64,000 nucleotides of DNA, taken from Aotearoamyces nothofagi (Eukaryota; Ascomycota; Leotiomycetes; Leotiales; Tympanidaceae). Shown here piece by piece: positions 52,735-61,020 of this stretch (positions are counted from its first letter, which is position 1; each line of letters opens with the position of its first letter). The notes below the pieces were generated by a model, which was not told the origin of the DNA, did no database searches, and saw nothing but the letters and a program-made list of their open reading frames with translations. The position numbers and the translations under genes are program-made. The stretch is taken from positions 992,001-1,056,000 of the forward strand of contig JADDTR010000002.1 in NCBI GenBank assembly GCA_015345905.1, written 5' to 3'.

Positions 52735-55693
52735 ATGTCTGGACGACGCGACTTTCTCAGCCAACCGGCGCCTGAGAACTATGTTGCTGGTCTCGGTCGA
52801 GGAGCTACTGGTTTCACCACTAGATCAGATCTCGGTCCTGCGCGAGAAGGGCCAAGTGAGGATCAGATCAAGGAAGCTCTCGCAAAGCGTGCTGCTCAGT
52901 TAGGTGCTGCGGCTCCCACAGCTTACGGTGCGCCGGAGAAAAAGGAGGAGGACGATGATGACGAGCGCTTTCAAGACCCCGAGAATGAAGTTGGTCTCTT
53001 CGCAGGCGGCACATATGACAGAGATGATGATGAGGCGGATAGGATATACCAGGAGGTAGATGAGAAGATGGACAGGCGGCGGAAGATACGCAGGTTGGTC
53101 TCCCCTTACCCCAGTTTTCCCTCGCGTGCCTTTAAAGCAGATTGTTTATCACATATCCTGTCTTTAGTTGAACAGATTACCGACATTATACCTACAGGGA
53201 AGCACGAGAGAAAGCAGAACGCGAAGAATATGAGCGAAACAACCCCAAAATTCAACAACAATTTGCAGATCTGAAACGAGCCCTGGGAACTGTCAGTGAT
53301 GAGGACTGGGCAAATTTACCAGAAGTTGGAGATCTTACTGGCAAGAACCGAAGAAGCAAGCAGGCGTTGCGGAACAAGTTCTATGCAGTGCCTGATAGTG
53401 TTCTTGCTGGAGCAAGAGACCAGGCGCAGCTAGGGACGACAGTTATGGATGATGGGAGTGCAACTAATGGAGATGCGCCAGATGGTACAATGACGAATTT
53501 TGCTGATATTGGTGCTGCAAGAGACAAGGTCCTGCAAGTCCGTCTAGACCAAGCATCACAAGGGACTGGGACAGACTCGGTAGCTGGAAGTGCAACAAAT
53601 ATTGACCCCAAGGGCTACCTTACTAGTTTAGCTAAGTCGCAGATCAACGAGGGAGAAGCACAAGTGGGTGACATCAAGCGAGTGCGAGTATTGTTGGAAT
53701 CTGTCATCCGAACGAATCCCAAGCATGCGCCAGGCTGGATCGCTGCTGCCCGTCTCGAAGAACTTGCTGGAAAGATTGTGGCAGCCAGGAACGTCATCGC
53801 GCGAGGCTGTGAGCATTGTCCGAAGAGTGAAGATGCTTGGTTGGAAAATATCAGGTTAAATGACAACCACAACGCAAAGATTATTGCAGCAAACGCTATC
53901 AAGAACAACGATCACTCGGTTCGACTCTGGATTGAGGCTATGAAACTAGAATCAGAGCCTCGAGCGAAGAAGCGGGTCATTAGACATGCGCTTGATCATA
54001 TCCCGCAATCAGTCTTGCTATGGAAGGAAGCTGTCAACCTTGAAGAAGATCCGGATGATGCTCGGCTACTTCTTGCAAAAGCTACCGAAATTATTCCTCT
54101 CTCTGTTGAATTATGGCTGGCACTCGCTCGTCTAGAAACTGCCGAGAATGCTCAAAAGGTCCTTAACAAGGCTCGTAAAGCAATCCCAACGTCATATGAG
54201 ATTTGGATTGCAGCTGCGCGGCTACAAGAACAGCAAGAGCAGGCGGGTATTCCAAGTAAAGTCAATGTCATGAAGCGTGCAGTTCAAGCTCTTGCAAAAG
54301 AGTCAGCGATGTTGAAGCGGGAAGAATGGATCACAGAGGCAGAGAAGTGTGAAGATGAGGGTGCAGTCTTAACGGCCGGCAATATTATTCGGGAAACACT
54401 TGGCTGGGGTCTTGATGAGGACGACGACCGAAAGGATATTTGGATGGAAGATGCGAAATCAAGTATTGGCAGAGGCAAGTATGAGACTGCGCGCGCCATT
54501 TATGCGTATGCTCTACGAGTATTTGTCAATAGCCGAACTCTATGGCTTGCTGCTGCTGATCTTGAGAAGAACCATGGCACAAAAGAGGCTTTATGGCAAC
54601 TTCTTGAGAAGGCCGTAGAAGCATGCCCCCAGAGCGAGGTGCTATGGATGATGCTTGCGAAAGAGAAATGGCAAGCTGGCGAGATTGATAATGCACGACG
54701 AGTGCTTGGCAAAGCCTTCAACCAAAACCCCAACAACGAAGATATCTGGCTTGCAGCTGTCAAACTAGAGGCCGAGAATAATCAGCCTGAGCAAGCCCGA
54801 GAATTGCTCAAGACTGCAAGACAAGAAGCTCCAACAGATCGTGTATGGATGAAGAGCGTGGCCTTTGAGCGCCAACTTGGCAATGTTGAAGCAGCGCTTG
54901 ACCTTGTAAACCAAGCTCTGCAGCTGTTTCCAGCTGCATCCAAACTATGGATGATGAAGGGACAAATCTATGAAGGCGAAGGCAAACTCCCTCAAGCTCG
55001 TGAGGCATACAGTACTGGTACCAAAGCCTGTCCACGATCTGTTCCTCTCTGGCTGCTATTCTCCCGCCTAGAGGAAAGGGCCGGTGTTGTAGTCAAAGCA
55101 CGGAGTGTTCTCGATCGTGCTCGTCTGGCTGTTCCAAAATCGCCGGAACTCTGGACCGAATCTGTACGCGTCGAGCGACGAGCGAATAATATCAGCCAAG
55201 CAAAGGTCCTCATGGCGAAAGCATTACAAGAAGTACCGAACAGTGGCCTACTCTGGAGCGAATCGATCTGGCATCTGGAGCCTCGAACACAACGTAAACC
55301 TCGCAGTTTGGAAGCTATCAAGAAGGTTGATAATGACCCAATTTTGTTCGTGACTGTTGCAAGGATATTCTGGGGCGAGCGAAAACTTGAAAAGGCACAG
55401 AACTGGTTTGAGAAGGCTATCTTGCTGGATAGCGACTTGGGTGATACTTGGGCTTGGTATTATAAGTTCTTGATGCAACATGGAACAGATGTAAGCTCAA
55501 AAATCTGACTGGTATATGAATGATGATGGTTACTAATTATGGTGCAAAGGAAAAACGAGCAGACGTGATTTCGAAGGCAATTTTGAGCGAGCCAAGGCAT
55601 GGAGAAATATGGCAGAGTATTGCGAAAGACCCGAAGAATGCGGCAAAGCGCACAGAAGAGATTCTCAAAATGGTGGTAGGAAAATTGGATTAG
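52735..55693 (+). CDS. prp6: U5/tri-snRNP splicing factor Prp6 (Prp1)
   Basis: Three exons, 52735-53093, 53198-55490 and 55550-55693, give 931 aa. The first exon holds the PRP1 N-terminal domain (MSGRRDFLSQPAPENYVAGLGRG). Intron 1 is 104 bp. The long exon 2 encodes HAT/TPR-like helical repeats from about residue 280 to the end, with recurrent W and A/LE positions (ELWLALARLE, YEIWIAAARL, TLWLAAADLE). The last exon adds EKRADVISKAILSEPRHGEIW and ends KMVVGKLD; its acceptor is AAG with an ACTAAT branch site. Prp6 bridges U5 with U4/U6 in the tri-snRNP. Together with prp2 at 17-20 kb it is the second spliceosome gene in the window. Confidence 0.94.
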
Positions 55694-56054: not shown

Positions 56055-59000
56055 ATGGCGGCTCCCTTTTCGCTAGGAAAGGTCAAAAGGACCACTCTAG
56101 CAAAGAAATACGGTATCCCAGAAGGGGTCGAATATCTCGAAGAGAGAGGAAAGAGCGGCATCACTCCTCTGGCGCGATACCGACCAGGCGATACTCTCCC
56201 GTCGGTAGCACAGTTCAATGAGCGCCAGAGGCTGGAGCACGGCCAGCGAGGACGCTTTCACGGATTCACAGCCAACGAGCTTCAAGCACTGGGCTCCCTC
56301 GCGCCGTTTGAGCAAGCCCGGCCGTCCAATCTGGACATTCCAATACACCCGTTGTTCCAGCTGGACAATTGGGAGACGAGGGAGGCGATGCCGAAGCACC
56401 TGGCTATGTGGCAGCTGGGCAAGGGAAGAGGAGGCTACTGGGAGGTATGCGTCGGGAGAGATGCTGATGGCGCTTGCTGACTCCGTCGAAGGCACGAAAC
56501 CCCCTGGTGTGGGAAGTACTGAAGCCTTGCCTACAGCTGGCATCGCATTTCATCAGTAACAGCCACTTCTGGATCTGGTGCGTACATGTGCCTCTATATA
56601 AGCACGATGGTCTTCCCCCCCCAAAAAAAACTGATAGATCTCCGCAGGTGGGACGCGTTAGTGAACGGCGATTACAGGAGGCTGCCCCCCATGGAGGGCT
56701 TCAGGAACCTCGCGAGCTTCCATCTCCGGCGGCCCGAGGAAGCAGAGGCAGATAGAGAGCGCACGCAGCAGCACTTCTTGGCCCTGTCGAGCCAAATCAC
56801 CTGGAGATTTTTCCACGGCAGAAGCGACCCGGTGAGCGGCCTGGATCGGCAGGTAGACGCCTGGGTCTTCGCGTCGACGCACGTCGACTGGTATACGCAC
56901 AACTCGCTCGTGTGCCTCAACTACAACATGCTTGAGCCGCTCATGCGGGGAGACTTAACGGTTCGTGTAGGCCGCGCCGAGTAGTTGTGGCTTCAGATAC
57001 TTACGATTTATAGCCGGCAGAGGTACTGTCAACTCGGTTTCGTGTTGCGAACGTGATTATTCATGAGACAACAGTAGGTGATTCCACTTCGGCAGATGCT
57101 GTGTAGTCTATAACAAGTTATAACAACCATCCGCAAAGCGTTGTCAGAAGACTAAAGTAGGGAGGTCCAGCTAATGTATATCGACAGCACGCTCTGTGGG
57201 ACATTGTAAAAAAGGATTTGCCGGAGCTCGATCTGGAGCCATATTTTGAGAACGAGCCCGTGGCCGAACTAGGACATTCCATGGCGAACGCGGTATGCCT
57301 GCTCTTCCTCCTGCGTCTTGCCCGCTTCTGTCCTCTGCCCGCATACTGACAGCTTCTTTGCAGATGTACGGCGGCATGATCAGGGCCATGGAGGAAACGG
57401 ACAATGCGTATCCGGTTGTTGGCTACTTCGTAAGGGCATGGCCCCTGGAGCGGGACTCGGTGGGGTATATGCCGACTCTTTACGTCGACGATGCCATGCA
57501 GGCCGAGACGTGCTACCCCGTGCCCATACAATACTTTGAGAACCTCTTCCAGAGGGACTTCTGGAACTATTATGTCCCGAGAGCGCAAGGCCAGTGTCTG
57601 ATACCGGCGGACTCGGTGGTTGTCGGAAAGACTCTTCTGGCAGACCCAGCGCAGGCCACCGACGTCGAGAATGCAAGCATAAAGCTGGATCTTGTCGATA
57701 TGTACCCAAGCATGCCCCAGGACGTACTCGAGTTCTCCATCATCGAGAACAGGAAGCGGAGGCACACTGCCAAGGTCCAGGCGGCATACTACGCAACGGT
57801 CGTGGAATTGAGCAATCTCGAGGCTCGAATGTTCGACGACATGGTCCAGGACGTCTGGAGACCGGCGGGCGGTCCTCGGACTCCCGCCGCTCGTCCTCCG
57901 GCTATAATGTCGCTTGGGCAATCAAGAGCAGCTACTACTACATATGATGATGATCACGGCTATTTCGATGATGATGATGATGATGGAGAAGAGGATTCTG
58001 AAGGCTGGACGTGTCCTGATCAGCCGTATGACGAAGCGGTCCCTCCTCCACGTCCCAGGAGGTACAAGGACATCCACGACCTCCTCAGTCGCAACCGTCT
58101 CATCCTGGCTCTCGATTCCATGATCACTCCCATGCCCGAGCACACCCTGCTGTATCACGTCAACTGCCTGGACGAGATGTGGATCACGCGCGAAGAGTGG
58201 CGAGAGTATCTCAGGTACGCCAGCATAGTGCTGCGCGAAGATTTCCAGTAAGCAAGCCCCCCCCCATCGCCGCCTCTATGCCTGCGTCTCTGACTCTAGG
58301 AGGTGGACTCACTCCAGGCCTGGCCAGATCACCAGCTGCACATATGGATGGGACAGCGGACCCGCCGCTGCTCCCAGGCCCGCGCCGCCCGCAGGCCAAG
58401 CCGTCGACGCGTTCCACCTGCGTGCCTTTCGAGCATTCTGGGAAAGGGAAGACCACCCCTTCCAGAGCAGCGCCTTCGGCGACGTAGACGCGGAGCTGAT
58501 CCGCGAGTGGTTCAATCTCGACCACGGCGAAAAGTACGGCCAGCTTAGCAGGGAGGATTTCGCCGTGTTTATGAGCATGTCCAAGGATTACTGCATGTGA
58601 GTTTCTCCCCCCCCCCTTCCGTGTCGAGACGTCCTTCCCTGCTACCAAGATGTGCTGACATGAGAAGATGGGGTCCCCCGGGAGTCGTAAGGAGGCCGGT
58701 GAAGAGAGCCGAGGAGGAGGGTGATGCCCTACCCGCCTTTCTAGACCCCGCGCGATGGGACAACCAGTCCAAGATGGGATCGGGAACGCCGACAACAGAT
58801 GCCTCGTCTGCGGGTCTGTCGGACGAGAACGGCGCCTCGGACAGCGGCTCAGGCATCGGTGGCTCCGCCGTCGTCGTTGGCGCCGAGCGTGGTGCTGGCT
58901 CCGGCAGGGCCACCGCCAGCACCGCCCTTCTCGACACCGCCATCCCCAGTTCCAGTCTCGGTCCCAGGCCCGGCCCAGCCGCCAGCCCCGGCAGCTCCTC

Positions 59001-59250
59001 CGAGGATAGTTTCGGCATGCTACTCGACCCTCCCGAGCCGCCAGACGCAGCCGCACCCGAACCATCTAGCCGAAACAGAGATGGCAGCAGATCGAGATGG
59101 AGTTGGAGGGACAAGGCTAAGGGCATCGCGAAGAGGGTCGGAACGAGCATCGTCAGGGGCCGGGCAGCAGACGCTCTTCTCGGGCAGGGGAAGCGGAGGG
59201 AGAAGAATCTCGACGCGGTGACGGATCTGATGAGTAGGTTTGGCGTGTAG
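56055..59250 (+). CDS. Unrecognised 905-aa protein with an HExxH (HETTH) zincin-like motif
   Basis: Eight exons: 56055-56444, 56492-56577, 56648-56960, 57014-57073, 57188-57292, 57364-58247, 58300-58596 and 58668-59250. All phases agree and the coding sum is 2718 bases. Exon 4 ends ANVIIHETT and exon 5 opens HALWDIV, so HETTH (280-284) is built by splicing. A candidate third zinc ligand follows in NEPVAELGHSMAN (E306 or E310). The N-terminal part is mixed alpha/beta and Trp-rich (FWIWWDALVNGDYRRL, WYTHNSLVCLNYNMLEPL). Residues about 535-560 hold an acidic run. Two later blocks look folded (LLYHVNCLDEMWITREEW; LIREWFNLDHGEKYGQLS). The last 190 residues are Ser/Gly/Pro-rich with a basic end. 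There is no signal peptide. A soluble metallopeptidase-like protein is my inference. The exon 7 start region is the least certain. Confidence 0.68.
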
Positions 59251-59288
59251 GATATATTGATGAGTAGGTTTGGCGTGTAGGATATATT
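59229..59288. repeat. Exact 30-bp tandem duplication at the gene's 3' end
   Basis: The unit starting GATGAGTAGGTTTGGCGTGT occurs twice, at 59229-59258 and 59259-59288. The first copy includes the last codons (MSRFGV) and the stop of the HETTH gene; the second is untranslated. Confidence 0.95.
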
Positions 59289-59546: not shown

Positions 59547-61020
59547 CTAGAAAAAACGGGTCAGAAGGGCGTCTCGGAAGTCGTGCGAGTAGCCAATCGT
59601 GCTGCCACATTGGCTTTCCGCCCTCTTATCCTCTGCTTTGGGGAGCCACTCTGTGATCTTGGCGACTCTGTTTTCGTTCTGCGCTCCGGTTAGCCATGGA
59701 TACTCCAAGGGGATAAGCTGAGGCCCACCGAAGGATGCGTAGATAGCCACTCCGGCGGCGCTCCTTGCTGTGCTGTATCATGATAGAGGTCAGCAACCAG
59801 GCACGCGTCTGTCACGAATGGACAAATGCCAACTTACATTGCTCCATGCGCTTCCATAACCCGACAGCTGCATGTGGATCATAGCAGCTTTGCGCCATAA
59901 GTAGCAAGCCAATATAATCCGCTTCGCTCTCCTGCTCTCGACTGCCGGGCCTCATGACTCCCAGGTCTAATAGCAAGCTGCCCAAGTAATGGCCGAGACC
60001 AAGCGTTAAGCCGGTGGCGTCGAGATATTGAAAGAGCCAGATGATCGGCTGCAACATAACCATAGAGCTCATTCGCTCGGCCGAGTGCTGTGCAAGATTA
60101 TGTGCAATCTCGTGGCCGAGAACAGCCGCCAGTCCGTCATCGCCGCGGCAGATAGGTAGAATACCACTGTAGACAAACACTTTTCCACCAGGCAATACGA
60201 ACGCATTTGCGGTCCCTAATATATCCCAAAACTGTCAGTATTGCCTTCCAAAGAATGGTGGATAGGATACCACCCCACCCGGATCCTCAATGACTCTAAC
60301 TTCCCACCCTACATTGTTCCCATGCGTGCCTGTGCCCAAATCGCCTCCGTCAATCAACCGTGCCAACACCCTCTCCACCATCCTGACCCTCGGATCGCCC
60401 GGTGGTAAGATCTTTCCCTGTTGTGCTTCCTGCGCCAGAATCTGTCTGTACGCAATCTCGCCCTGCTTCTCCGCGCTCTCTTCCGAGAAGCAATCTGCAG
60501 GATTCAGAGCGCACGTCAGCCAGTGCCTTTCCCAAAGCGGCCTTCAGCCAGACTCCAAAGTCCAACAGGCCTTCTCTGCCCCAGGGCGGAGATCTCGGGC
60601 GCCCGGAATATACGTACTGAATCGTTTACGCCCCGAGACGGGGACCTCTTCGATGTGTGTGAAATAAAAGACTACGCCGCCACCTGCAGCGGCTATGATA
60701 ATCAGTTGAAAGGACGGCGTTCGGACCGTACGTCTGAGCTGCTCGGGCGTTACGAGAGGCCGCGCATTGCGGTAACGATGCTGGGACTCCCGAGTCGAAG
60801 CGGAAAACGGCCGCCAATGCTGTCGGGGCTTGACACGCGGTATACGGGGAATATGAGCAGTAGGTTTTTGGCCGAGGGCTCGAACAGGATAGCGGAAAGC
60901 TCGAAGGAGTGCTTGCTGGGCGACGGATGGGCGAGGCTGACGGATAGGCATCAAGGACCTGAACATGGGCGAGACCGCTTGGAGGCTGGCAGGACGTGCG
61001 AATAGTCCCATCTTAGACAT
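59547..61020 (-). CDS. oma1: Mitochondrial inner-membrane metalloprotease Oma1
   Basis: Five exons, 61020-60618, 60494-60279, 60215-59838, 59772-59729 and 59678-59547, give 390 aa with introns of 123, 63, 65 and 50 bp. A long Arg-rich presequence precedes a membrane segment (FQLIIIAAAGGGVVFYF, about residues 100-118). Exon joins rebuild GRKRFNCFSEES and VIEDPGTANAFVLPGGK. The M48 site is HEIAH (241-245) with ESEAD (302-306) giving the third ligand. Exon 4 encodes WLSTHPS and the last exon ends with DCGS-like QCGS. Oma1 cleaves the Mgm1/OPA1 type of substrate and responds to loss of membrane potential. It converges with the HETTH gene. Confidence 0.92.

What the first reader, a model, noticed from the sequence alone, without database searches (positions are those of the whole stretch)
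56055..59250. Candidate new fungal zincin: 905-aa protein whose HETTH motif is split by an intron
Seen: hand splicing of eight exons gives ...VIIHETT|HALWDIV... with acidic residues 22-26 positions later (NEPVAELGHSMAN), the usual distance for a third zinc ligand. Established: HExxH plus a downstream Glu defines gluzincin-type metallopeptidases. Inference: this is an uncharacterised, cytosolic metallopeptidase-like family. The flanking N-terminal and C-terminal regions match nothing I know. It sits tail to tail with the M48 protease Oma1, probably by chance.
Basis: partly seen in the sequence, partly recalled or inferred. Interest (0 to 1): 0.72.

Follow-up and report, generated by a model that had tools for sequence, protein, structure and literature searches.

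The report
Uncharacterised fungal zinc-peptidase-like family
A fungal gene encodes a probable zinc-dependent protein-cutting enzyme that matches none of the family libraries searched here and has six relatives in the same genome, five of which keep the active-site signature while the sixth is broken within it.

Summary
Eight exons at 56055-59250 give a 905-aa protein (906 with a neighbouring acceptor) in which HETT|HALWDIV spans the exon 4/5 junction. The strongest new evidence is six relatives in the same genome. Both motif histidines are kept in 7 of 7 loci and the glutamate of HExxH in 6 of 7; the exception, L025, has a stop there. In 5 of 7 loci the same phase-0 intron splits HExx|H, which supports the splicing without RNA data. 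Downstream, E300 and E310 are kept in 7 of 7 and E306 in 6 of 7 (Asp in L027). Pfam, NCBIfam, PADLOC, PHROGs and PDB gave no significant match, and four scans of viral or prokaryotic collections found no relative. Best reading: a multigene family of intracellular zincin-type metallopeptidases, gluzincin-like, not filed under any existing family. Catalysis, zinc binding, fold and location are inferred; no usable structure model could be made. New here are the multigene family, the conserved intron in the motif and a correction to the third-ligand proposal. It is a new family-level member of a well-known superfamily, of moderate interest.

The parts
56055..56444 (+). exon 1, aa 1-130, N-terminal domain
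   Evidence: relatives align over it
56492..56577 (+). exon 2, aa 131-158
56648..56960 (+). exon 3, region before the active-site helix
   Evidence: the preceding phase-2 intron, in the first Trp codon of a Trp-Trp pair, recurs in L022, L023, L024, L025 and L026
57014..57073 (+). exon 4, aa 264-283, ending in HETT
57062..57073 (+). codons of H280 E281 T282 T283, first part of HExxH
57074..57187 (+). intron 4, phase 0, splitting HExx|H; same position in L022, L023, L024, L026
57188..57292 (+). exon 5, aa 284-318, starting with H284
57236..57238 (+). codon of E300 (EP motif), 7 of 7 loci
57254..57256 (+). codon of E306, candidate third zinc ligand, 6 of 7 loci, Asp in L027
57266..57268 (+). codon of E310 (ELG), candidate ligand or second-shell residue, 7 of 7 loci
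57364..58247 (+). exon 6, from aa 319, with the FWNYYV segment similar in relatives
   Evidence: single-sequence model mean pLDDT 32.4
57943..58005 (+). acidic linker (YDDDHGYFDDDDDDGEEDSEG), also acidic in L022
   Evidence: sequence; alignments
58300..58596 (+). exon 7; with the end of exon 6 forms a C-terminal module shared with L022
   Evidence: tblastn on six loci: window-L022 E 1e-8, L022-L024 E 2e-6; whole-genome search with this module finds only L022, at E 0.069
58668..59250 (+). exon 8 (58665 is an alternative first base), low-complexity C-terminal tail and stop codon
59228..59287 (+). exact 30-bp tandem duplication spanning the stop codon

Best explanation
The gene encodes an intracellular zincin-type metallopeptidase of the gluzincin kind. 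H280 and H284 hold a zinc ion, a glutamate in the following conserved segment (E306 or E310) gives the third bond, and E281 activates the water that attacks the peptide bond. It belongs to a divergent multigene family of this fungus: at least seven loci, at least one of them broken. The N-terminal domain, the segment after the active site and the C-terminal module, flanked by acidic and low-complexity stretches, probably choose substrates or partners. Shown: gene structure by sequence and comparison, homology, conservation of the site, no match in the searched libraries. Inferred: zinc, fold, peptidase activity, location, role of the flanking domains.
For: Single HExxH exactly where stated. 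Both histidines in 7 of 7 and the catalytic glutamate in 6 of 7 loci; the exception is an in-frame stop in a copy whose N-terminal part was not found. Identity to the window core is 27-40% for the five relatives in A1; of 181 columns with six letters, 22 are invariant and include both H, E300, E306 and E310. HExxH, a loop of variable length (EP lies 13-22 residues after the second H) and an ExxxE site follow in the order usual for gluzincins (the order is recalled). In the window protein NEPVA at 305-309 fits the NEXXT/A and EXXA sites listed for M1 and M48 in PMC7804941 (passages read). Conservation as the way to tell real from chance HExxH is argued in PMC3650047 (passages read). The distant relative L027 scores E 2e-12 (search space set to 10000) against the family profile; the best of 2000 shuffles reaches E 5.5.
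Against: No structure or assay. No library match supports the fold; the only peptidase-like Pfam hit is M50B at E 0.074 for one of six members. NExxA is not a family feature: N305 is kept in 2 of 7 loci and A309 in 3 of 7 (read). E306 is Asp in L027. L027 links to the others by profile and by two weak hits (E 2.6e-4; 0.024), but a search from L027 itself finds none of them. The loci come from one genome, so breadth is unknown. Relatives' gene models were made by alignment to the window protein and lean towards its exon pattern; whole open frames were not established for L023, L024 and L026.
Confidence: 0.72

Rival explanations
1. Zinc-binding zincin-fold protein that no longer cuts peptides and works as a scaffold or binding protein, the divergent flanking domains doing the work.
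For: Large regions outside the motif align between the window protein and L022; the spacing between HExxH and EP varies.
Against: The catalytic Glu of HExxH is kept in 6 of 7 loci, the exception being a stop codon; a mere binding protein would be expected to tolerate its loss (inference).
Confidence: 0.15
2. A diverged branch of a known family (such as M48, M3, M1, WLM/SprT or M35) too distant for the searches used.
For: NEPVAE in the window protein resembles M1/M4/M48 sites; hmmscan with single sequences is less sensitive than profile-profile search, which was not run against known families; L027 has His 5 and 9 residues after its second motif His (read), near the Wss1 pattern HEXXHXXXXXH of PMC7804941.
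Against: No Pfam or NCBIfam match beyond chance-level hits; no metzincin, aspzincin, SprT, M48 or M1-spacing pattern in the window protein; blastp against the 139-aa M48 exon next door gives no match better than E 2.1.
Confidence: 0.12
3. The HExxH is a chance motif in an unrelated protein, or the junction is wrong.
For: The motif alone is expected 0.039 times by composition and exists only after splicing.
Against: Motif intact in 6 of 7 loci and same intron in 5 of 7; in L025 and L027 the motif region is read without an intron.
Confidence: 0.01

Closest known systems
Gluzincins of clan MA (M1, M4, M48; motif lists in PMC7804941, passages read)
   Same: HExxH, then NEPVA with E306 22 residues after the second His in the window protein, and a further acidic residue four on
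   Different: No profile match; N305 and A309 not kept in the family; variable spacing; extra N- and C-terminal modules; fold not shown
M48 peptidase next door on the minus strand (Oma1 by recall)
   Same: HExxH
   Different: blastp best E 2.1, outside the motif; no Pfam M48 match in the window protein; adjacency looks like chance
An06g01580 of Aspergillus niger, a metallopeptidase with HEXXH that the authors of PMC7804941 could not assign to a clan or family (passage)
   Same: Fungal HEXXH protein outside assigned families, placed with the gluzincins by those authors
Wss1/SprT-like proteases (M80 and kin)
   Same: HExxH proteins of the cell interior (recalled); L027 carries basic clusters and extra His residues after the motif
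   Different: No HExxH-x4-20-H pattern in the window protein; no Pfam match

Membership tests
Zincin tribe | HExxH conserved in homologues | tested here: met
   6 of 7 loci intact, the seventh has a stop at E
Zincin tribe | zincin fold | not testable with these tools
Gluzincins | Glu as third ligand downstream | tested here: inconclusive
   E300 and E310 7 of 7, E306 6 of 7; which one binds is unknown
M1 | HExxH-x18-E spacing | tested here: not met
   regex on the window protein; no Pfam match
Metzincins | HExxHxxGxx[HD] | tested here: not met
   regex on the window protein
M35 aspzincins | HExxH plus GTxDxxYG-like site | tested here: not met
   regex on the window protein, (motif recalled); no Pfam match
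M48 | Pfam M48 match and ExEAD-type site | tested here: not met
   blastp to the neighbour's exon
SprT / Wss1 | third His 5-21 residues after HExxH | tested here: not met
   regex on the window protein; L027 does have such His residues (same call), so the branch of L027 is not excluded by this feature
M3 | HExxH plus ExxS site and further residues | not tested
   only the absence of a Pfam match

The most novel reading that the evidence does not exclude
A fungus-specific, fast-diverging family of intracellular or nuclear proteases with a birth-and-death pattern (at least seven loci, at least one broken, relatives at 27-40% identity), whose distant member L027 carries basic clusters and, by eye, a SAP-like stretch. 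It might cut chromatin-bound or foreign proteins, as DNA-protein-crosslink proteases or conflict systems do.
Probability: 0.1. Interest if true: 0.65.

Novelty: new member of a known kind. Interest (0 to 1): 0.42.

Why it matters
If the zincin reading is right, this genome holds a multigene family of intracellular metallopeptidases that gave no Pfam or NCBIfam match here, so surveys based on those libraries would miss it. The intron splitting the active-site motif also means that a gene finder which misses one 60-nt exon loses the motif, which may be one reason such a family stays unannotated (inference).

Tried and rejected
Pfam at E up to 10: 0 families for the 905-aa protein and for the L027 frame; for the six core sequences of A1 only M50B 0.074 and SH3 0.088, one member each. 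NCBIfam, PADLOC and PHROGs were given the A1 cores only, not full-length proteins or L027: best E 0.18, none, and 0.22. PDB: nothing for residues 1-717 of 905; three hits for the profile at E 1.3, 1.3 and 1.7, the third aligning over the HExxH region with a chain named bacteriophage virulence determinant; taken as chance and not pursued. Relatives elsewhere: viral contigs with the window core and with L027 and genome contigs with A2 and A3 gave none; 1, 0, 94 and 153 stretches matched a pattern but none was confirmed. These collections are viral and prokaryotic, so absence from other fungi cannot be concluded. Own genome with PF13933 gave nothing, but its 14 controls did not ring either, so that test is void. 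The C-terminal module (224 aa) finds elsewhere in the genome only L022, at E 0.069.

AlphaFold of exon 6 alone gave mean pLDDT 32.4 and was not used. An origin from the neighbouring M48 gene was rejected. Five literature searches (17, 8, 0, 15 of 26, and 2 papers listed) showed no paper that by title or start of abstract describes this family; two papers were read in passages only (PMC3650047; PMC7804941).

Full report
Observation. The region 56055-59250 was read and spliced by script. Eight exons with GT-AG introns of 47-114 nt give a 905-aa protein with one stop at the end. The last acceptor is ambiguous: 58668 (905 aa) and 58665 (906 aa) both follow AG; the third in-frame position tried, 58671, does not. 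Retaining the motif intron meets a stop after 10 codons.

Relatives. A search with residues 1-488 found five further loci: C5:407-409 kb (L022), C22:264-266 kb (L023), C2:1286-1287 kb (L024), C5:1047-1048 kb (L025) and C27:152-154 kb (L026). A search with the L023 core added a distant one at C5:336.7 kb (E 2.6e-4; also E 0.024 from the L026 core), here L027. A profile of the six others gives it E 2e-12 with the search space set to 10000, the best of 2000 shuffles reaching 5.5. Against this, a search of the genome with the first 360 residues of the L027 frame found only itself. Searches with the L024 and L026 cores added no further locus. Seven loci is a lower bound, since the tool scores only its best candidates.

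Conservation. In alignment A1 the five relatives have 40, 31, 36, 35 and 27% identity to the window core. Of 181 columns with six letters 22 are invariant, among them both histidines, the Ala after the second, the Glu and Pro of EP (E300), E306, E310 and S314. L027 keeps HEIGH, EP and ELG but has Asp for E306. So first H 7 of 7, E281 6 of 7, second H 7 of 7, E300 7 of 7, E306 6 of 7, E310 7 of 7. The exception at E281 is L025, with a stop codon there; alignment also did not find its N-terminal part, so it is probably a pseudogene. Whole open frames were not established for L023, L024 and L026; the counts concern the motif region.

Shared intron. In L022, L023, L024 and L026 an intron with GT and AG ends lies at the same phase-0 place, HExx|H (85, 51, 90, 59 nt). 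With the window gene this is 5 of 7; L025 and L027 read through the motif without an intron. A phase-2 intron in the first codon of a Trp-Trp pair is shared by the window gene and the five relatives; with a 250-nt limit on introns the L026 model differed there. These models were aligned to the window protein and may lean to its exons; frames on both sides and the splice signals agree, and read-through was tested only for the window intron.

Architecture. The window protein and L022 align over residues 13-751. A C-terminal module links them (tblastn on six loci, E 1e-8) and L022 with L024 (E 2e-6), though a whole-genome search with it finds only L022, weakly (E 0.069). Hydropathy gives no 19-residue stretch above 1.1 in the window protein. 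Five N-termini were scored: four have no 9-residue stretch above 0.94 in the first 35 residues, and L026 has one of 2.4. The N-termini were chosen by eye from the frames, so cytosolic or nuclear location is likely but not shown. L027 has basic clusters KKRKR and KRQKK and, by eye only, a SAP-like stretch; Pfam finds no SAP domain there.

What it is. In the window protein HExxH is followed by NEPVA, which fits the patterns given for M1 and, in part, M48 in a fungal degradome paper (PMC7804941, passages). N305 is kept in only 2 of 7 loci and A309 in 3 of 7 (read), so this likeness is not a family feature. Metzincin, aspzincin, SprT, M48 and M1-spacing patterns are absent from the window protein; L027 has extra His residues after its motif, so an SprT- or Wss1-like site in that branch is not excluded. 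Libraries give no family. The best account is a gluzincin-like metallopeptidase family of its own. By analogy with thermolysin (recalled), E306 would be the ligand and E310 the residue that orients H280; the Asp in L027 instead favours E310, or an Asp ligand in that branch. This stays open.

Limits. No fungal sequence collection was available; breadth, orthology and true novelty are untested. Zinc, fold and activity are inferred.

Verdict.

Noticed in passing
window 59228-59287: Exact 30-bp tandem duplication that spans the stop codon of the gene, so the last residues and the stop are repeated just downstream.
   Followed up: partly
window 58665-58668: Two AG acceptors three bases apart for the last intron (905 or 906 aa).
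   Followed up: no
L025 (G000:C5:1046000-1051500), about 1485-2182 +: A relative with an in-frame stop at the catalytic Glu and no N-terminal part found by alignment; probably a pseudogene. It also lacks the motif intron.
   Followed up: partly
L027 2686-5097 +: 803-codon open frame, distant relative with HEIGH; C-terminal half has basic clusters and a SAP-like stretch by eye, no Pfam match.
   Followed up: partly
window 59812-60234 -: Exon of an M48 peptidase (PF01435, E 7.5e-26), tail to tail with the gene; best blastp between the two E 2.1.
   Followed up: yes
window 53172-55508 +: PRP1/HAT-repeat splicing factor gene upstream on the same strand.
   Followed up: no
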